From JBFMHD01 sp040752395 [NCBI: Candidatus Hydrogenedentota bacterium] (GTDB lineage: Bacteria > JBFMHD01): a stretch of DNA of 12,467 nucleotides. The notes beneath the pieces are model-generated. The model had not been told where the DNA came from, ran no database searches, and saw nothing but the letters and a program-made list of their open reading frames with translations. Below are positions 110 to 12,467 of this stretch, in pieces. Location of the stretch: contig JBFMHD010000068.1 in the NCBI GenBank assembly GCA_040752395.1, forward strand, positions 1-12,467. Direction: 5' to 3'. The stretch's first letter is position 1; every line of letters begins with the position of its first letter. The translations under genes were made by a program, and so were the position numbers.

Positions 110-160
110 GTTTTTCATACCTTGTGTAGAGCGCAACCCGCGCTCATGAGTACTCCTTCG
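110..160. repeat. Dispersed repeat core, copy A, with hairpin
   Basis: By hand alignment 42 of 49 positions match copy B at 6002-6050. The core holds a hairpin, GAGCGC at 129-134 and GCGCTC at 140-145 around AACCC. In copy B the stem is kept although a C is replaced by T (G-C to G-T). Heptamer arrays lie on both sides: GACTCAC upstream and three perfect TTCGGAG units downstream. Both copies are intergenic, so this looks like a small non-coding dispersed element. Confidence 0.8.
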
Positions 161-6001: not shown

Positions 6002-6050
6002 GTTTTTCATACGTTGTGTAGAGCGCAAACGCGCTTATGTTGACTCCTTT
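6002..6050. repeat. Dispersed repeat core, copy B, with hairpin
   Basis: This is the partner of the core at 110-160. Its hairpin is AGCGC at 6022-6026 and GCGCT at 6031-6035 around AAAC, with an outer G-T pair. It lies in the 146-bp gap between prs and rplY and ends just before the prs stop codon (6056), so transcripts from prs into rplY would carry it. The pattern of heptamer array plus core repeats the layout at the left edge. Confidence 0.8.
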
Positions 6051-7119: not shown

Positions 7120-7234
7120 TTTGTCAAATAAATTATTTGAGCTCTCTGTTTGTCTTCTATGTATCCCATCAGTCTTTGGTTTTAGTTCCTAAGTTCGGTG
7201 TTTGGTTTATAGATTACTTATTTTTAGTAATGCA

Positions 7235-7329
7235 TCAGAACGTGTGAAATAATCATCATTAATACCGACTAACTCTTTTATTATCACTCCCAGTTTTCTA
7301 AAAAAGTCTAATTTTTTCACACGTTCTGA
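7235..7329. other. 15-bp perfect inverted repeat, 65-bp spacer
   Basis: TCAGAACGTGTGAAA at 7235-7249 is the exact reverse complement of 7315-7329. The arms lie between prs and the tRNA promoter and match no other site I can see. They might be an operator pair, the ends of a tiny lost element, or the stem of a structured transcript. Confidence 0.7.
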
Positions 7330-7356
7330 GGGAATACTATTTTTAATTATTTTGTC

Positions 7357-7404: not shown

Positions 7405-7481
7405 TCCGCGGTAGCTCAATCGGTAGCAGCGGCTGGCTGTTAACCAGTAGGTTGCAGGTTCGATTCCTGCCCGCGGAGCCA
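7405..7481 (+). tRNA. tRNA-Asn (anticodon GTT), CCA encoded
   Basis: The acceptor stem TCCGCGG pairs with CCGCGGA (7471-7477). The anticodon loop CTGTTAA (GTT at 7439-7441) sits on a GCTGG/CCAGT stem and the T arm is GCAGG/CCTGC with TTCGATT. The discriminator G7478 is followed by CCA. The D arm is one base longer than usual (GCAGC where GAGC is expected), leaving a 3-bp D stem or an extra loop base. From 7473 onward the sequence is also identical to the 5' part of the ParB-type HTH gene at 10075, so this tRNA marks the island edge. It is complete and probably functional. Confidence 0.95.
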
Positions 7482-7496
7482 GTCAATACGATCCAT
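7473..7496 (-). pseudogene. 5' remnant of the ParB-type HTH gene, fused to the tRNA end
   Basis: Reading leftward from ATG 7496, the frame gives MDRIDWLR, matching MNRIDWLR of the intact gene that starts at 10098. It then passes directly into the tRNA sequence and loses all similarity. Only about eight codons remain. The switch point is exactly where the tRNA 3' end and the HTH gene share GCGGAGCCA, so recombination at this shared 9-mer can explain the junction. Confidence 0.75.
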
Positions 7497-7500
7497 GGCA

Positions 7501-7524
7501 CCCAGACTGGTTAACAGTGCAGGG
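7501..7524. other. Stem-loop upstream of the HTH start, tRNA-side copy
   Basis: ACTG (7506-7509), loop GTTAA, CAGT (7515-7518), with an outer CCC/GGG pair (7501-7503 and 7522-7524). The copy at 10103-10125 keeps the fold with different stem bases. Positions 7506-7517 are also the reverse complement of the tRNA anticodon-arm half 7437-7448. Confidence 0.55.
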
Positions 7525-7539
7525 GGTTCAAAGTATATT
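7511..7539 (+). promoter_or_regulatory. Outward promoter into RM1
   Basis: TTAACA (7511-7516), a 17-bp spacer, and TATATT (7534-7539). Transcription would start near 7546, only about 8 bases before the methyltransferase ATG, so this message would be almost leaderless and would lack the AAGG at 7540-7543. Read-through from the tRNA promoter would supply it. The same promoter layout recurs at 10113-10140. Confidence 0.5.
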
Positions 7540-7553
7540 AAGGTAAAGATTAT

Positions 7554-9110
7554 ATGCAAAAATTAAGTTTTAAAACCGAGAAAGAATTTCAGGAAGCAAT
7601 CTTACGGGAAAAAGCAAAAGGAACTCCTGATATAGAAATTGGGCAAAAATATGGAGTTACTTTCAGATATATTGAAAAACTTATTACTAAATCACAAGGG
7701 CTCAACATTAGTGCTTTCAAGGTTTCTAAAAAAGTAAAACGACTTTACCCAAAGGACTTTAAGGAAGAACAAACTACTGTTTGGAATTTTAAAGAGAGAG
7801 GTAATTGGGCAACTCACAGTGGAGAATACAGAGGCAATTGGTCTCCATACATTCCTCGTAATGTGATTCTTAAATATTCAAAGCCCGGTGAATTGGTTTT
7901 AGATTATTTCTGTGGCGCGGGAACAACTGCTGTAGAATCAAGATTACTTGGAAGAAGGTGTATAGCATTTGATATTAATGATAAGGCCATTGAACTGGCA
8001 AAGAAGAATATAGATTTTAGCATAGAATCAAAGCAGTTGACTTTTATTGATGAAAAAAACAATTTGAAAATTTATGAGCCAGAATTATCAGTTGGCGACG
8101 CAAGAGATTTATCATTCATACAAGATAACTCCATAGACTTAATCTGCGCTCACCCTCCCTATGCGAATATTATTCATTACACAGATTCTAAAAAAGGCGA
8201 TCTATCATTCTTCGATATTGATGAATTCCTAAGAGAAATGGCTAAAGTTGCAAAAGAAAGTTTTAGAGTACTAAAGCCTGGTAGACAATGCGCTATCTTA
8301 ATAGGTGACACACGTAGGCAAAAACATGTAATTCCATTAGGTTTTCAACTTATAAATGTTTATCTGAATGCTGGTTTTCAGTTAAGAGAGCTTGTTATTA
8401 AACGCCAACACAACTGTAAAACTACAGGATTTTGGTATGCCAATAGTATAAAATATAATTTCCTTCTCTTGGCTCACGAGTATTTACCAATTTTTGAAAA
8501 ACCCAAAACACCTCTTTCTTTAAGAGTAAAAGAGAAAGGTGTGGGTTATGGTTTAGTTGCTCCCACCTTGGAAAAACCGCCACTAAAGAGGAAATTAGAC
8601 GAACTTGAGGCCAGAACAGTATGGATTTTACCAGGGAAAGATTTTGAAAAACGGTTAAATAAGAATGTGATTGACCGATATTCAAACGGTGATGGCTATT
8701 CGACTGTTACTTTTAATTTTCATTCTAAAATTGAAGCATGCTTCTCTGAGAAAGGAGAAAAAAGGAACAAGGGATTGCTTTTCATAAAATCACCATTTTT
8801 GAATGGCAGTCCTTCACAACCAAATATTGAAACCTACTTACAAGAAATAAATGAGATCACAAAATTGAATTCACTCAAGAAAGGCGGTTTTTTGGTAATT
8901 CAAACCCAGGATGTAAGAATAAATGGGTATATAGAACCTATTGCCAAAAGGTTGGTAGATATATTGGTGCTTGATAATTTATGGCTCAAGGAGATTATAG
9001 TTATTATTCAAAAAGATACAAATTTACCCCCAAAAAACCCGGGGGATTATTTAAAAATAGCACATCAATATTTACTCGTTTATGAGGTAAAAAATGAAGA
9101 AACTCTTTAG
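7554..9110 (+). CDS. Permuted DNA amino-methyltransferase, RM1
   Basis: This enzyme would methylate adenine N6 or cytosine N4 at the RM1 site, which cannot be read from sequence. Residues 20-46 look like a helix-turn-helix. The SAM-binding motif I, DYFCGAGTT (117-125), comes before the catalytic HPPY (200-203). This is the reverse of the beta-class order seen in RM2. The conserved block GNWATHSGEYRGNWSPYIP (83-101) and IGDTRRQKHVIPLGF (250-264) fit a known family of stand-alone bacterial methyltransferases. Residues about 408-512 repeat the second half of the domain in degenerate form (SPF instead of HPPY). AAGG lies 10 bases before the ATG. Its end overlaps the next gene by 17 bp, as expected for an RM operon. 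Confidence 0.9.
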   Translation: MQKLSFKTEKEFQEAILREKAKGTPDIEIGQKYGVTFRYIEKLITKSQGLNISAFKVSKKVKRLYPKDFKEEQTTVWNFKERGNWATHSGEYRGNWSPYIPRNVILKYSKPGELVLDYFCGAGTTAVESRLLGRRCIAFDINDKAIELAKKNIDFSIESKQLTFIDEKNNLKIYEPELSVGDARDLSFIQDNSIDLICAHPPYANIIHYTDSKKGDLSFFDIDEFLREMAKVAKESFRVLKPGRQCAILIGDTRRQKHVIPLGFQLINVYLNAGFQLRELVIKRQHNCKTTGFWYANSIKYNFLLLAHEYLPIFEKPKTPLSLRVKEKGVGYGLVAPTLEKPPLKRKLDELEARTVWILPGKDFEKRLNKNVIDRYSNGDGYSTVTFNFHSKIEACFSEKGEKRNKGLLFIKSPFLNGSPSQPNIETYLQEINEITKLNSLKKGGFLVIQTQDVRINGYIEPIAKRLVDILVLDNLWLKEIIVIIQKDTNLPPKNPGDYLKIAHQYLLVYEVKNEETL

Positions 9111-9652
9111 CTTGTTAAAAGCAATCTATTACTATCTGGAATCCTCTTACAAAATATGGAAAGTCAAACGAATGCAAGAAGACGACCTTGTTTATATAAC
9201 CAAGGCAAATGTGCATTTTGAAGTTTATCCTGGCAGCAAACAACAATCTCCCTATGACTTTATTGTAAAATTCAGAGAACCAAATAAGCGTGAAAGAACC
9301 CCTGCACATGTTCACTTGATTGTAGAGATGTATGTTAAACATGCCTATAATTCATCATTAACTCTAAAATTAAAAGACCACATTCTAATAATGCTAAGCC
9401 AGATTAAACCTGTGGTTACATTTCCACCGGCCCTTCAGTTTTTTAAACCCGAACACATTGAACCTTTTTAGAGACTTGGATAAGGTTGGAGAATTTACAG
9501 TAGAATTTTTGCTTGTTGCAATAGAGCTCGTGGCGATACAAGAGAAAACCAATTATCCCACAGGAACTGTGACTGAGAATTTGTATAAGAACTTTGGAGT
9601 TAAAGATAGATTTTCAGTAATTCAAGCGGCGATATGGAAAGGTAGAAAGTAG
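9094..9652 (+). pseudogene. Frameshifted putative RM1 restriction endonuclease
   Basis: Two frames form one protein of about 185 residues. The first (9094-9471, 125 residues) starts after GAGG and six bases, within the methyltransferase end. It ends at a TAG inside a run of five T (9466-9470). Skipping one T continues as EPFRDLDKVGEFTVEF to 9652. The second frame alone has only a TTG without a ribosome site. The N-terminal part contains RTPAHVHLIVEMYVKHAY; the later part contains AIELVAIQEKTNYPTG. I do not recognise a named nuclease family; the role is inferred from coupling to the methyltransferase. The break may be a real mutation, a sequencing error at the homopolymer, or +1 recoding at CCT-TTT-TAG. 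The stop is only 2 bp from the HTH gene end. Confidence 0.7.
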
Positions 9653-9654
9653 TA

Positions 9655-10098
9655 TTAACCTGGAAGTAATTTTATTTGTTCTTTCATTTTGTTGAATTCT
9701 TGGATTTGTTTTGATGACTCTTTTATATTAAGAAGAGGCCGCAGGCGGCGTTCCGAGAAGAAGCGGATTGTCTTCTGTTCCTGGAGGGACAGAAGAGCCT
9801 TCTGGATTTCTGGTGCCAGTTTAAGGAGTGCCATTATCTGGCTAACTCTGGCTCTGGTAATGCCCATCTCCCGGGCTATATCGGACTGTGTTTTTATGAA
9901 TGGGGCCTTGAATAGGTTCTCGTAGCGTCTGGCTTCCAGAAGTGGGCATTCATAAACCTTCTGGGGCTTGACCGGTGGCATGCCGATGCCTATAAATAGT
10001 CGTCTGTTTCTGATTTCCTGGTAGATATTGAACTCCTGCCACCAGGGAATATCTTCGCAGTGAATGGGCGGTATGCGGAGCCAGTCAATACGATTCAC
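9655..10098 (-). CDS. ParB-type HTH DNA-binding protein, copy 1
   Basis: The 147-residue protein has a KorB/ParB-like HTH, SDIAREMGITRARVSQIMAL, after an opening RIDWLRIPPIHCEDIPWW. It lacks the ParB nuclease-like N-domain, so plasmid partition is not implied. It probably binds DNA at or near its own boundary. I prefer GTG 10098: the remnant beside the tRNA has ATG at the same place, and the copies differ by one base just upstream. GTG 10149 would give 164 residues. Neither start has a clear Shine-Dalgarno. The 3' end stops 2 bp from RM1 and the 5' end faces an outward promoter. Residues from RMGI onward are repeated exactly at the right edge. Confidence 0.85.
   Translation of the reverse strand: MNRIDWLRIPPIHCEDIPWWQEFNIYQEIRNRRLFIGIGMPPVKPQKVYECPLLEARRYENLFKAPFIKTQSDIAREMGITRARVSQIMALLKLAPEIQKALLSLQEQKTIRFFSERRLRPLLNIKESSKQIQEFNKMKEQIKLLPG
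9753..9878. repeat. 126-bp perfect direct repeat, copy 1
   Basis: Identical base for base with 12342-12467, as far as the window goes. It covers the HTH motif and following helices. To the left, towards the 3' end of the gene, the two copies diverge clearly. Confidence 0.95.
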
Positions 10099-10127
10099 TG
10101 CACCCAGCGTGGTTAACACGCAGGGGA
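10075..10127. repeat. Island boundary repeat, HTH-gene copy
   Basis: The second copy of the boundary repeat at 7473. It spans the first codons of the HTH gene, its start codon, the stem-loop and the -35 of the outward promoter. Identity is complete over the first 20 bases. Confidence 0.9.
10103..10125. other. Stem-loop upstream of the HTH start, copy 1
   Basis: GCGTG (10107-10111), loop GTTAA, CACGC (10117-10121), then an A-A mismatch and an outer CCC/GGG pair (10103-10105 and 10123-10125). Compared with 7501-7524, two stem pairs have changed on both sides (C-G and G-C for A-T and C-G), so pairing is kept. Confidence 0.6.
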
Positions 10128-10140
10128 GTTTATATATAAA
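10113..10140 (+). promoter_or_regulatory. Outward promoter into RM2
   Basis: TTAACA (10113-10118), a 16-bp spacer, TATAAA (10135-10140). Transcription would begin near 10147, within the palindrome TTGTGCACAA (10142-10151), leaving a leader of about 79 bases before the methyltransferase. It matches the layout at 7511-7539. Confidence 0.6.
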
Positions 10141-10141
10141 G

Positions 10142-10151
10142 TTGTGCACAA
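10142..10151. promoter_or_regulatory. 10-bp palindrome at the RM2 transcript start
   Basis: TTGTGCACAA is its own reverse complement and lies over the predicted start point of RM2 transcription. It might be an operator for the HTH protein encoded next to it. A second inverted repeat, AAATGGT/ACCATTT (10183-10189 and 10208-10214), lies just before the RM2 start. Confidence 0.35.
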
Positions 10152-10225
10152 ACGAACTGTTTCGGTTATTTTAAATTAGGCGAAATGGTGGCTTTAAGCA
10201 AGACAAAACCATTTGAGAATATGAT

Positions 10226-11515
10226 ATGAAAACGCTACACAAAATAATAATTGGTGATTCAAGGCAAATGAAGGAGGTTGTAAATGAATCAGTTCATCTC
10301 ATTATTACCTCTCCTCCCTACTGGCAGTTAAAGGATTATGGGAATGGAAGGCAGATAGGTTTCAATGATACTTATGAAGAATATATAAACAACCTTAATT
10401 TGGTGTGGGACGAATGCCACAGGGTTTTACATAAAGGTTGTCGTTTATGTATTAATATTGGCGACCAGTTTGCTCGTTCTGTATATTATGGAAGGTATAA
10501 AGTCATTCCGATAAGAACAGAGATAATCAAGTTCTGTGAAAACGTTGGTTTTGATTACATGGGTGCTATCATCTGGCAGAAAGTCACTACTTGCCATACC
10601 ACTGGTGGCGCAACAGTAATGGGTTCTTTCCCTTACCCAAGAAGTGGGATTCTTAAACTTGATTATGAATTTATCTTGATTTTCAAAAAATATGGCAATC
10701 AGCCAAAAGTAAATCACGAAGTTAAAGAACAATCAAAATTAACTCAAGAGGAATGGAATCAATACTTTACTGGACACTGGAATTTTTCGGGAGAAAAACA
10801 GGATGAACATCTGGCGATGTTTCCTGAAGAATTGCCGAAGCGACTTATTAAAATGTTCAGTTTTGTCGGGGATACTGTGCTTGATCCATTTCTTGGAAGT
10901 GGAACTACCTCTTTGGCAGCTAAGAACCTGAATAGAAACTCAGTTGGATATGAAATAAACGAGGAATTTTTAGCAGGCATAAAAGAAAAACTCGGACTAA
11001 GACAAAGTACTATTTTTCAAAATGCCAGTTTTGAGATAATCAAGCAAAAAGATATGAGACTAAACTTTAAAGAAGAGATTAAAAGATTGCCTTACATCTT
11101 CAAAGATCCTATAAGATTTGACAAAAAGATTGACCCCAGAAAATTAAGGTTTGGCTCTAAAATAGACAATTCTCATTCTGAAAGGGAAACATATTATACT
11201 GTGAAAGAAATAGTCTCGCCAGAAATTTTGATTTTAAATAATGGATTAGAAATCAAGTTATTGGGTGTAAAAGAGAAGCCAGAAAAGAATGGAGAGGCTA
11301 TTCAATTTTTAAGGAATAAAACGCGTGGACAAAAGGTATTCATAAAGTTCGATACTACAAAGTATGATGAGAAAAATAACTTGCTTTGTTATCTTTATTT
11401 GTGGAATAAGACTTTTTTAAATGCTCATTTGATTAAAAATGGTTTGGCTGACGTGGATGTTGCAAAAAACTATAAATACAAATCTAAGTTCTTGACTTAT
11501 CGGAAGAGAGTATAA
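10226..11515 (+). CDS. Beta-class DNA methyltransferase with SNase-like C-terminus, RM2
   Basis: This is the modification enzyme of the RM2 pair. The catalytic motif IV is TSPPYW (28-33), the form typical of cytosine-N4 enzymes. Motif I is DPFLGSGTT (220-228), in the usual beta-class order, and GYEIN at 241 follows. The partner is an MjaI-type nuclease, so the predicted site is CTAG. Residues about 323-429 add a staphylococcal-nuclease-like domain: a V-x-L-NNG-IKLLGV strand, EAIQFLRNKTRGQKVFIKFD, a YLYLW strand and LNAHLIKNGLADV. The nuclease Arg35 and Arg87 positions are not Arg here (Lys344 and a neutral residue), so it probably binds rather than cuts. The stop codon abuts the next ATG with no gap. 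Its own ribosome site is weak. Confidence 0.92.
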   Translation: MKTLHKIIIGDSRQMKEVVNESVHLIITSPPYWQLKDYGNGRQIGFNDTYEEYINNLNLVWDECHRVLHKGCRLCINIGDQFARSVYYGRYKVIPIRTEIIKFCENVGFDYMGAIIWQKVTTCHTTGGATVMGSFPYPRSGILKLDYEFILIFKKYGNQPKVNHEVKEQSKLTQEEWNQYFTGHWNFSGEKQDEHLAMFPEELPKRLIKMFSFVGDTVLDPFLGSGTTSLAAKNLNRNSVGYEINEEFLAGIKEKLGLRQSTIFQNASFEIIKQKDMRLNFKEEIKRLPYIFKDPIRFDKKIDPRKLRFGSKIDNSHSERETYYTVKEIVSPEILILNNGLEIKLLGVKEKPEKNGEAIQFLRNKTRGQKVFIKFDTTKYDEKNNLLCYLYLWNKTFLNAHLIKNGLADVDVAKNYKYKSKFLTYRKRV

Positions 11516-12148
11516 ATGGCAAAAGAATGGATATTGAATCAGGCGAATATGAGGTGGGGGCTGACTAAGAAAAACAAAGTTGGTCCGGTTTCGGAATTGA
11601 TAAGAAAGTGTTCCCCTAAGTCCTTGAAGGATTGGGAGGAGTATTATTATAAAAATGTCTACTCCAAACAGCATTTGGAAGAACTTGGCAGAAGGCTATA
11701 CATAAAGATAACCGAAGTATGTCAAGCAGAAATAGAAAGCATAACAGAGGAAGCTTGTATTGATTTTATCATTAATTTGGTAATTGGTAGAACCTACGAG
11801 GGCTATCAGTCTGAAATACAAACCATTTATGGGCAATTACAAGAGGCATTAGGTGTTAAAGTGGAACCGGCCCCAGATGAATGGGATAGAGGATATAATG
11901 TTGATTTTTTCATTAAGGTTAAGGAGAAATATATTGGGCTTCAAATTAAACCAGCAGGATATGCTTACATTACCCAAATCATCAATGAATTAGAATTTCA
12001 AAAAAAGACACATGAGAAATTTACCGCCAAATATGGAGGTAAAGTATTCTATGTTATCTCAGTAAAGGAAGGGAAAAAGAAAATCATCCATAACGACTCG
12101 GTTATTGAAGAAATCAGAAAAGAAATTGAGAGATTGAAGAAAGAATGA
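11516..12148 (+). CDS. MjaI-family type II restriction endonuclease
   Basis: The 210-residue protein matches the MjaI family, whose founding member from Methanocaldococcus jannaschii cuts CTAG. Family-like blocks are the opening KEWILNQANMRWGL, KVGPVSELIRKCSPKSLKDW (21-40), LYIKITEVCQAEIESITEE (61-79) and EPAPDEWDRGYNVDFFIKV (117-135). A PD-(D/E)xK-type core is visible as D130 and then LQIK145. GGAAGAG lies a few bases before the ATG, inside the methyltransferase end, and the genes are contiguous, so modification and restriction are made from one message. No frameshift or missing core residue is seen. Confidence 0.93.
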   Translation: MAKEWILNQANMRWGLTKKNKVGPVSELIRKCSPKSLKDWEEYYYKNVYSKQHLEELGRRLYIKITEVCQAEIESITEEACIDFIINLVIGRTYEGYQSEIQTIYGQLQEALGVKVEPAPDEWDRGYNVDFFIKVKEKYIGLQIKPAGYAYITQIINELEFQKKTHEKFTAKYGGKVFYVISVKEGKKKIIHNDSVIEEIRKEIERLKKE

Positions 12149-12163
12149 CGCCACCGCATTACC

Positions 12164-12231
12164 TAACACAGCATATATGCTGCGGGCTTATGCCCTTCTC
12201 CTTTGCAACGTTGTATATGCTGGAAATGTTA
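12164..12231. other. Imperfect inverted repeat resembling an integron attC site
   Basis: TAACA plus CAGCATATA (12164-12177) pairs with TATATGCTG, four unpaired bases (GAAA, 12223-12226) and TGTTA (12227-12231). The left end, ACCTAAC at 12161-12167, fits the attC box RYYYAAC; the right end, GTTATCC, fits only partly. The interior has a 14-bp palindrome (12169-12182) and a GGGC/GCCC hairpin (12184-12195). It could also be the end structure of the RM2 message. Confidence 0.4.
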
Positions 12232-12258
12232 TCCTGCGATCTATATTCATAGAGGGGG

Positions 12259-12467
12259 CTAAATTTTCTCTTCTATTTTCTTGAATTCTTCTATCTGTTC
12301 TATCGGATCTTTTATTGTTAAGAGTGGTCGCAGGCGGTGCTCCGAGAAGAAGCGGATTGTCTTCTGTTCCTGGAGGGACAGAAGAGCCTTCTGGATTTCT
12401 GGTGCCAGTTTAAGGAGTGCCATTATCTGGCTAACTCTGGCTCTGGTAATGCCCATCTCCCGGGCTA
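12259..12467 (-). CDS. ParB-type HTH protein, copy 2 (5' part beyond the window)
   Basis: A second copy of the HTH gene, cut by the right edge. The visible C-terminal 68 codons or so hold the HTH (GITRARVSQIMALLKL) and the same helices as copy 1. The last 20 residues differ: TIKDPIEQIEEFKKIEEKI instead of the longer NIKESSKQIQEF tail. The DNA from 12342 on is identical to copy 1. It lies about 110 bp after the RM2 stop, convergent with it. Its start and neighbour are not visible. Confidence 0.85.
   Translation of the reverse strand, partial: AREMGITRARVSQIMALLKLAPEIQKALLSLQEQKTIRFFSEHRLRPLLTIKDPIEQIEEFKKIEEKI
12342..12467. repeat. 126-bp perfect direct repeat, copy 2
   Basis: Partner of 9753-9878. 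It runs to the window end, so the true repeat may be longer. To its left the two genes diverge. Confidence 0.95.

What the first reader, a model, noticed from the sequence alone, without database searches (positions are those of the whole stretch)
7473..12467. RM cassettes alternate with copies of one HTH gene that carries an outward promoter
Two unrelated RM pairs both sit directly downstream of the same segment: HTH start codon, stem-loop, then TTAACA-(16 or 17 bp)-TATAWW pointing into the cargo. On the far side of each pair lies the 3' end of the next HTH copy, in one case 2 bp after the cargo stop. The sequence shows the repeated layout; a cargo platform that supplies a promoter, comparable in logic to an integron, is my inference. 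If right, a third cargo with the same promoter should follow the 5' end of HTH copy 2, just beyond this window.
Basis: partly seen in the sequence, partly recalled or inferred. Interest (0 to 1): 0.75.

Follow-up and report, generated by a model that had tools for sequence, protein, structure and literature searches.

The report
Gene-cassette array anchored at tRNA-Asn
Two restriction-modification type cassettes sit head to tail behind a bacterial tRNA-Asn gene, joined at a short copy of the tRNA's 3' end, and related arrays in other bacteria suggest an integron-like way of stacking and exchanging useful genes at a tRNA.

Summary
The first copy of the shared segment abuts the 3' end of a tRNA-Asn(GTT) gene; the second repeats that tRNA end (GCGGAGCCA) inside the 5' end of the HTH gene. 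The window is thus a tandem cassette array at tRNA-Asn: core, left end with promoter-like site, cargo, convergent ParB-type HTH gene, core. Relatives agree: HTH copies lie within 7 kb of tRNA-Asn(GTT) in 15 loci (15 of 27 tRNA predictions on scanned HTH stretches), and the same left end precedes seven cargos, one in a phage contig. Omnitrophota have arrays with up to four HTH copies, and one cassette, 99% identical over 3.1 kb in two genomes, starts and ends exactly at the GGGGAG core between different flanks (its HTH gene has in-frame stops). No recombinase was recognised in the window; distant HTH homologues are encoded directly downstream of large serine recombinases. Most likely: att-flanked cassettes moved in trans, recombinase inferred. 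The promoter travels with the cassette, so there is no integron-style platform promoter. The predicted third cargo was untestable.

The parts
7405..7481 (+). tRNA-Asn (anticodon GTT), anchor of the array
   Evidence: ARAGORN; Rfam RF00005, 65.6 bits
7473..7481 (+). core copy 1, GCGGAGCCA (tRNA 3' end)
7482..7540 (+). left end of cassette 1, with TTAACA 7511-7516 and TATATT 7534-7539
   Evidence: alignment with other left ends; promoter scan
7554..9110 (+). cargo 1: type II DNA methyltransferase (518 aa)
   Evidence: PF01555 1.3e-31; PADLOC MTase_II 2e-93
9094..9652 (+). cargo 1: second gene, split over two frames (9094-9471 and 9458-9652); possibly the restriction partner
   Evidence: no family match (pieces searched apart)
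9655..10098 (-). HTH_ParB protein copy 1 at the right end of cassette 1 (GTG start 10096-10098)
   Evidence: PF17762 7.4e-9; AF2 model resembles Noc/ParB DNA-binding domain
10054..10080 (+). right-end motif TTCGCAGTGAATGGGCGGTATGCGGAG, overlapping the HTH 5' codons
   Evidence: 7 matches in 1.09 Mb of fetched loci, all beside an HTH 5' end (motif drawn from these same loci)
10075..10083 (+). core copy 2, GCGGAGCCA
10084..10143 (+). left end of cassette 2, with TTAACA 10113-10118 and TATAAA 10135-10140
10226..11515 (+). cargo 2: type II DNA methyltransferase with C-terminal SNase domain
   Evidence: PF01555 1.4e-46 and PF00565 1.4e-7; PADLOC MTase_II 1.6e-198
11516..12148 (+). cargo 2: MjaI-type restriction endonuclease
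   Evidence: PF09568 6.9e-45
12259..12467 (-). HTH_ParB protein copy 2, 3' part, cut by the window end

Best explanation
The window holds a tandem array of site-specifically inserted gene cassettes at the 3' end of tRNA-Asn. Each cassette runs: core (tRNA 3' end, GGAGCCA), left end with a promoter-like site, cargo genes, convergent HTH_ParB gene whose 5' side carries a conserved right-end motif, next core. Shown by comparison: the unit, its boundaries at the core, anchoring at tRNA-Asn(GTT) in several lineages, and one whole cassette found between different flanks in two genomes. Inferred: a recombinase acting in trans, most likely a large serine recombinase of the kind whose downstream partner gene is homologous to the HTH protein, joins circular cassettes to the core. 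The HTH protein is most likely an accessory or directionality factor and perhaps a repressor of the left-end promoter, but some cassettes keep only a broken HTH gene, so it may act in trans too. Insertion at the core leaves the tRNA end intact and places cargo behind the promoter of its own left end.
For: tRNA 3' end repeated at the cassette junction. Asn(GTT) is 15 of 27 distinct tRNA predictions on the scanned HTH-bearing stretches (12, 3; duplicate stretches L116 and L152 dropped); in 11 of the 15 tRNA and HTH converge. L004 and L075 carry the same left end directly after tRNA-Asn. L008 and L009 share nearly the same sequence after two different tRNA-Asn genes. L224 and L225 share 3,130 bp at 99.0% plus 154 bp at 98%, starting at GGGAGCCA and ending at GGGGAGGG, with different flanks. 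Motif GTTC-N14-18-GGGGAG: 12 of 17 occurrences in 20 contigs lie within 225 nt of an HTH 5' end. HTH dN/dS 0.06-0.22 in nine usable cross-genome pairs. The HTH hit lies within 1 kb downstream of a serine recombinase in 19 of 82 hits, with hhalign homology over 117 columns (prob 99).
Against: No recombinase was recognised in the window (7 proteins scanned). In 11 of 19 searched genomes no PF07508 recombinase was found, including G001, G003-G008 and G154 (assemblies may be incomplete). The close relatives of the window protein never sit beside a serine recombinase. The exchanged L224/L225 cassette carries an HTH copy with in-frame stops, and 9 of the 57 matches listed have stops. The GTTC motif is missing at 9 of 22 hand-picked non-tRNA junctions, among them every window-type one, and at 19 of 31 HTH copies in the 20 Omnitrophota contigs. 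L005 starts at a chromosomal site without a recognised tRNA. L004 and L075 have only GCGGAG(C/T) at the far HTH end. Eleven of the 15 tRNA-Asn loci have HTH E-values of only 1e-11 to 1e-21 and may be a wider family. No excised circle was seen.
Confidence: 0.68

Rival explanations
1. Accretion of decayed integrative elements: several elements with a serine or other integrase inserted one behind the other in tRNA-Asn and lost their integrases, leaving att-flanked remnants (cis-mobilisable elements). Nothing is a dedicated cassette system. This overlaps with the best explanation and differs in whether integrase-less units still move.
For: HTH homologues sit beside serine recombinases with tRNA-Asn 2-3.5 kb away in L137 and L144, and a serine recombinase fragment lies beside tRNA-Asn in L242. 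Most cassette genomes searched lack PF07508. Some HTH copies are broken.
Against: Cassettes are compact: cargo and HTH stops are 2, 3 and 8 bp apart or overlap by 4 bp (window, L005, L075, L002). A right-end motif recurs. One cassette in which no recombinase was recognised was exchanged recently as a unit.
Confidence: 0.35
2. One reading: a fixed platform (HTH gene with an outward promoter) into which cargo is inserted, as in an integron.
For: Promoter-like TTAACA-N15-17-TATA in front of seven cargos.
Against: The promoter segment also occurs at the tRNA without an HTH body (window, L075, L004), so it moves with the cargo. Many Omnitrophota left ends begin with a terminator-like hairpin (by eye). 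The core is tRNA-derived.
Confidence: 0.07
3. Repeats made only by duplication and homologous recombination between HTH copies, with no site-specific event.
For: The two window HTH copies share a long identical DNA stretch.
Against: Identity between junction types breaks at the 7-9 bp core, also next to a tRNA gene that has no HTH homology. The L224/L225 cassette ends exactly at the core.
Confidence: 0.08
4. The mobile event uses a tyrosine integrase of an ordinary tRNA-Asn genomic island acting in trans; the serine recombinase link of the HTH family is coincidental.
For: Tyrosine integrases usually target tRNA genes (start of the abstract of PMC4383910 in the listing). A 7-bp core fits an overlap region (recalled). 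L093 repeats 18 bp spanning its tRNA end. The close HTH relatives have no serine recombinase beside them.
Against: No tyrosine recombinase in 38 loci by a crude pattern without a positive control. The wider HTH family is tied to serine recombinases.
Confidence: 0.3

Closest known systems
Integrons and their gene cassettes
   Same: Tandem head-to-tail cassettes, a recombination sequence tightly packed at the 3' end of cargo, varied adaptive and defence cargo, array at one chromosomal site
   Different: Anchor is the tRNA-Asn 3' end, core is GGAGCCA, cassettes hold several genes and encode an HTH protein, the promoter is carried by the cassette, and no integrase was recognised in the arrays
pdif/dif modules of Acinetobacter plasmids (starts of abstracts seen)
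   Same: Small modules flanked by short sites and moved by a recombinase encoded elsewhere
   Different: They use XerCD dif-like sites; here the sites are tRNA-Asn ends with an HTH gene in the module
Genomic islands in tRNA genes (start of the abstract of PMC4383910, Islander) and cis-mobilisable elements (recalled)
   Same: tRNA 3' end as target, tRNA kept whole, tandem accretion with repeated ends
   Different: Units of about 1-7 kb without a recognised integrase, a recurring right-end motif, and a shared HTH gene at many junctions
DUF2924 - large serine recombinase - HTH loci of Myxococcota (found here)
   Same: Homologous HTH protein; in two such loci the HTH gene lies 2.0-3.4 kb from tRNA-Asn
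   Different: They encode the recombinase; the cassettes here do not. Their exact ends could not be placed

Membership tests
Integron | integron integrase gene (intI, tyrosine recombinase) next to the array | tested here: inconclusive
   none among 7 window proteins scanned; no match to a crude tyrosine recombinase pattern in 38 loci, no positive control; no profile search was run
Integron | crossover at GTTRRRY in attI/attC | tested here: not met
   identity breaks at GGAGCCA / GGGGAG; GTTRRRY is recalled
Integron | tandem cassettes exchanged as units | tested here: met
   one cassette, L224/L225
tRNA genomic island | insertion at a tRNA 3' end that keeps the tRNA whole | tested here: met
tRNA genomic island | integrase encoded in the element | tested here: not met
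   no integrase among 7 window proteins, 8 L075 proteins or the four L005 cargo proteins; present beside distant HTH relatives such as L137 and L144
pdif module | XerC and XerD half-sites at module ends | not tested
   no dif alignment was run; the core is a tRNA end
ParB/Noc DNA-binding proteins | ParB-type HTH domain | tested here: met
   PF17762 above its cut-off; PDB Noc/ParB hits
ParB/Noc DNA-binding proteins | N-terminal CTPase/nuclease domain of full ParB | tested here: not met
   145-aa protein with a short beta hairpin before the HTH domain; only the HTH region matches
Serine recombinase partner (directionality factor) | encoded directly beside a large serine recombinase | tested here: inconclusive
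   19 of 82 hits of the wider family, none of the close relatives of the window protein

The most novel reading that the evidence does not exclude
A second, integron-independent gene-capture system: bacteria of many phyla use the 3' end of tRNA-Asn as a landing site where recombinase-less cassettes, each ending in a ParB-type HTH gene or its remnant, are stacked and exchanged by a serine recombinase in trans. The left end carries a mirror copy of the tRNA-Asn anticodon arm that helps synapsis or regulation, and phages carry cassettes between hosts.
Probability: 0.35. Interest if true: 0.92.

Novelty: new variant of a known kind. Interest (0 to 1): 0.8.

Why it matters
Integrons are the textbook case of stacked gene cassettes. 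A second cassette system anchored on a universal tRNA gene, with defence and metabolic cargo, would explain how poorly cultivated phyla gather restriction, AbiE and transporter genes. It gives annotators a simple signature (GGAGCCA junctions plus a convergent HTH gene) and offers a testable recombinase-HTH pair.

Tried and rejected
Searches for the window HTH protein in IMG/VR, phages and plasmids found no relative; a search for the MjaI-type enzyme in IMG/VR found none. The whole-genome route for the window is closed, so the third cargo could not be tested. A search with prs in 147 genomes gave at best 65% identity for a near full-length match and showed tRNA-Gln beside prs, so no empty tRNA-Asn site for the window. 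A profile of the left end found, among the loci held at that time, only the left ends it was built from (plus duplicate L015) and a partial match in L001 at E 0.014. A check for long direct repeats in nine regions showed HTH-linked pairs only in L084 and L079, and none in L002, L007, L009, L081 or L082. Exact far ends of the serine recombinase elements L137 and L144 could not be placed. The mirror match of the tRNA anticodon arm in the left end (12 nt in the window, 11 nt in L075, 0 of 300 resampled sequences each) is absent in L008, L136, L093 and L077, so I keep it as a lead only. In one search the L002 and L075 rows were misframed by me and are not used; pairs with saturated dS are also left out. 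Ten paper searches listed nothing on tRNA-Asn cassette arrays; only listings and abstract starts were seen, no paper was opened.
Full report
Observation. The window repeats a 44-nt segment (7473-7516 and 10075-10118, 89%) and a 205-nt HTH 3' part (9674-9878 and 12263-12467, 89%). Between them lie two cargos that start with a methylase. Cargo 2 is an N6_N4 methylase with an SNase tail plus an MjaI-type enzyme. Cargo 1 is a type II methylase followed by a gene whose frame is broken and whose pieces match no family. TTAACA and TATAWW sites stand in front of both cargos. The first HTH stop is 2 bp beyond the cargo stop.

The missing piece is a tRNA gene. ARAGORN finds tRNA-Asn(GTT) at 7405-7481. 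Its last nine bases, GCGGAGCCA, begin the first repeated segment and recur at 10075-10083, inside the 5' codons of HTH copy 1. Left of the core the two junctions are unrelated (tRNA against HTH); right of it they match. The repeating unit therefore runs from core to core: 7473-10074 and from 10075 on. The promoter belongs to the cassette, not to a platform.

Close relatives. One genome scan gave 12 loci from records titled Goldbacteria, Nitrospirae, Omnitrophota, Stahlbacteria, Elusimicrobia, WOR-3, Eisenbacteria, Myxococcales/Myxococcota and an uncultured bacterium. In L005 (Elusimicrobia) two cargos, each with a type II methylase, each follow the same left end, with one HTH gene between them; the far end is an HTH 3' remnant next to chromosome, and no tRNA was found. 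In L075 (genome G154) the left end directly follows tRNA-Asn and leads Fic, HNH-repeat, AbiEi and AbiEii genes, whose last stop lies 8 bp before the stop of a convergent HTH gene; beyond it lie a methylase with a TdeIII enzyme and an AbiV gene. L004 is the same chromosomal place with fewer genes: an 8.5-kb stretch of L075 is absent there and synteny then resumes. Alignment of six left ends shows an invariant TGGTTAACA and a TATA block 15-17 bp downstream. A seventh, from an IMG/VR phage contig, reads core, left end, TTAACA-17-TATACT, methylase; several neighbouring genes match phage families.

How common. With the HTH profile, 7 of 147, 22 of 294 and 1 of 35 genomes matched at E up to 1e-6, 3 of 295, 3 of 45, 9 of 20 and 17 of 329 at 1e-10 and 41 of 384 at 1e-8. 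Close relatives (E below 1e-60) are rare; most matches are the wider family.

tRNA-Asn anchoring. On the HTH-bearing stretches scanned with ARAGORN in intron mode and with both modes there are 27 distinct tRNA predictions, after dropping two duplicate stretches: 15 are Asn(GTT), 12 are others, of which three rest on implausibly long introns. Not every HTH match was scanned (for example L042-L048 were not). The Asn loci are the window, L004, L006, L008, L009, L075, L077, L093, L136, L137, L142, L144, L232, L239 and L242. In 11 the tRNA and HTH converge; in L008, L009 and L136 the HTH domain is 270-330 bp behind the tRNA on the same strand; in L006 it lies upstream. L008 and L009 have different tRNA-Asn genes followed by nearly the same sequence from GGAGCCA on. 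L077 has three copies of a 231-nt repeat starting at the core. L093 repeats 18 bp spanning its tRNA end 5.2 kb downstream. Eleven of the 15 loci have HTH E-values between 1e-11 and 1e-21; only the window, L004, L075 and L006 are stronger.

Arrays and exchange. In the phylum of G1166 (record titled Candidatus Omnitrophota) several contigs have same-strand HTH copies: L223 has 3, L224 has 4, L225 has 3, L226 has 2. Junctions there read ...CGGGGAG(CCA), often followed by what looks like a terminator hairpin. L224 and L225 share 3,130 bp at 99.0% and a further 154 bp at 98%, separated by about 70 bp present only in L224. Identity begins at GGGAGCCA and ends at GGGGAGGG, and the flanks differ. This is a whole cassette (AbiEi, AbiEii, SWIM protein, HTH) in two settings; its HTH copy has in-frame stops in both genomes, so the protein is not needed from that copy. 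The same kind of cassette occurs at about 77% identity in L223. Other cargo on array contigs includes TrkH/TrkA, KaiC/KaiB, ammonium transporter with P-II, a peroxidase with Fur, GNAT, PIN, and, near tRNA-Asn, a Schlafen-type helicase (L239) and a Gp49/HTH pair (L242); not every one was shown to be bounded by cores on both sides.

Right-end motif. GTTC-N14-18-GGGGAG occurs 17 times in 20 contigs, 12 of them within 225 nt of an HTH 5' end; 19 of the 31 HTH copies there lack it. Of 22 non-tRNA junctions that I picked by hand, 13 have GTTC at -24 to -20 (9 of 16 after merging similar ones); all GGAG positions in five of these contigs, true junctions included, have it in 18 of 316. The junctions without it include every window-type one. 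A form shared by the window type and L223, TTCGCNGTGARTN5-12GGAG, occurs 7 times in 1.09 Mb over 89 loci, always beside an HTH 5' end; the motif was drawn from these loci, so this shows specificity rather than an independent test. In the window it is coding, in L223 it lies outside the HTH domain, and in L002 it persists although the HTH 5' region is disrupted, so the DNA itself seems to matter.

HTH protein and recombinase. Pfam gives HTH_ParB. The model (mean pLDDT 84) resembles the Noc/ParB DNA-binding domain. Nine usable cross-genome pairs give dN/dS 0.06-0.22; pairs with saturated dS, two misframed rows and the partial window copy 2 are left out. In the wider family, 19 of 82 hits lie within 1 kb downstream of a large serine recombinase, 16 of them with a gap of 122-228 bp, and DUF2924 precedes it in several. 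Profile comparison aligns the window-type protein with these partners over 117 columns (prob 99, 27% identity), although the L144 partner alone matches no Pfam family at 0.001. L137 and L144 have such a pair with the HTH gene 2.0-3.4 kb from tRNA-Asn, and L242 a recombinase fragment beside tRNA-Asn. Against this, only 8 of 19 searched genomes hold PF07508 at all, and none of the close relatives has the pair. The serine recombinase step is therefore an inference.

Judgement. Shown: array, boundaries, tRNA-Asn anchor, one cassette in two settings. Inferred: recombinase, role of the HTH protein, promoter function. It works like an integron cassette array, but the junction is not an integron site. 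It may grade into accretion of integrase-less tRNA elements; the compact units, recurring motif and recent exchange speak for a system. Ten literature searches listed nothing on it, but the library is partial.

Noticed in passing
L004 11557-11844 and L006 7548-7936: Group I introns (Rfam RF00028, 87 and 85 bits) at tRNA-Asn(GTT) genes; ARAGORN reads these tRNAs only in intron mode.
   Followed up: partly
L239 about 2781-2803: An inverted copy of the tRNA-Asn 3' end (TGGCTCCGAGGGTAGGACTCGAA) lies about 50 nt behind the tRNA-Asn gene.
   Followed up: no
window 7439-7444 and 7510-7515: The tRNA-Asn anticodon arm and the left end form a mirror pair (CTGTTAACCAGT / ACTGGTTAACAG) nearly symmetric about the core; also seen in L075, not in L008, L136, L093, L077.
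   Followed up: partly
window 10226-11515: DNA methylase fused to a staphylococcal-nuclease-like domain.
   Followed up: no
window 110-136 and 6002-6028: A 27-nt near-identical repeat (GTTTTTCATACSTTGTGTAGAGCGCAA) and a 19-nt repeat in three copies spaced 14 nt at 46-92.
   Followed up: no
window 7225-7253 and 7311-7339: 29-nt inverted repeat (86% complementary) between prs and tRNA-Asn.
   Followed up: no
L197 3887-4948: Phage contig in which a cassette left end and methylase follow the 3' end of another methylase gene.
   Followed up: partly
L165-L194: tRNA-Gln(TTG) is predicted near prs in 27 of 30 fetched loci from the phylum of G004; the window has none.
   Followed up: no
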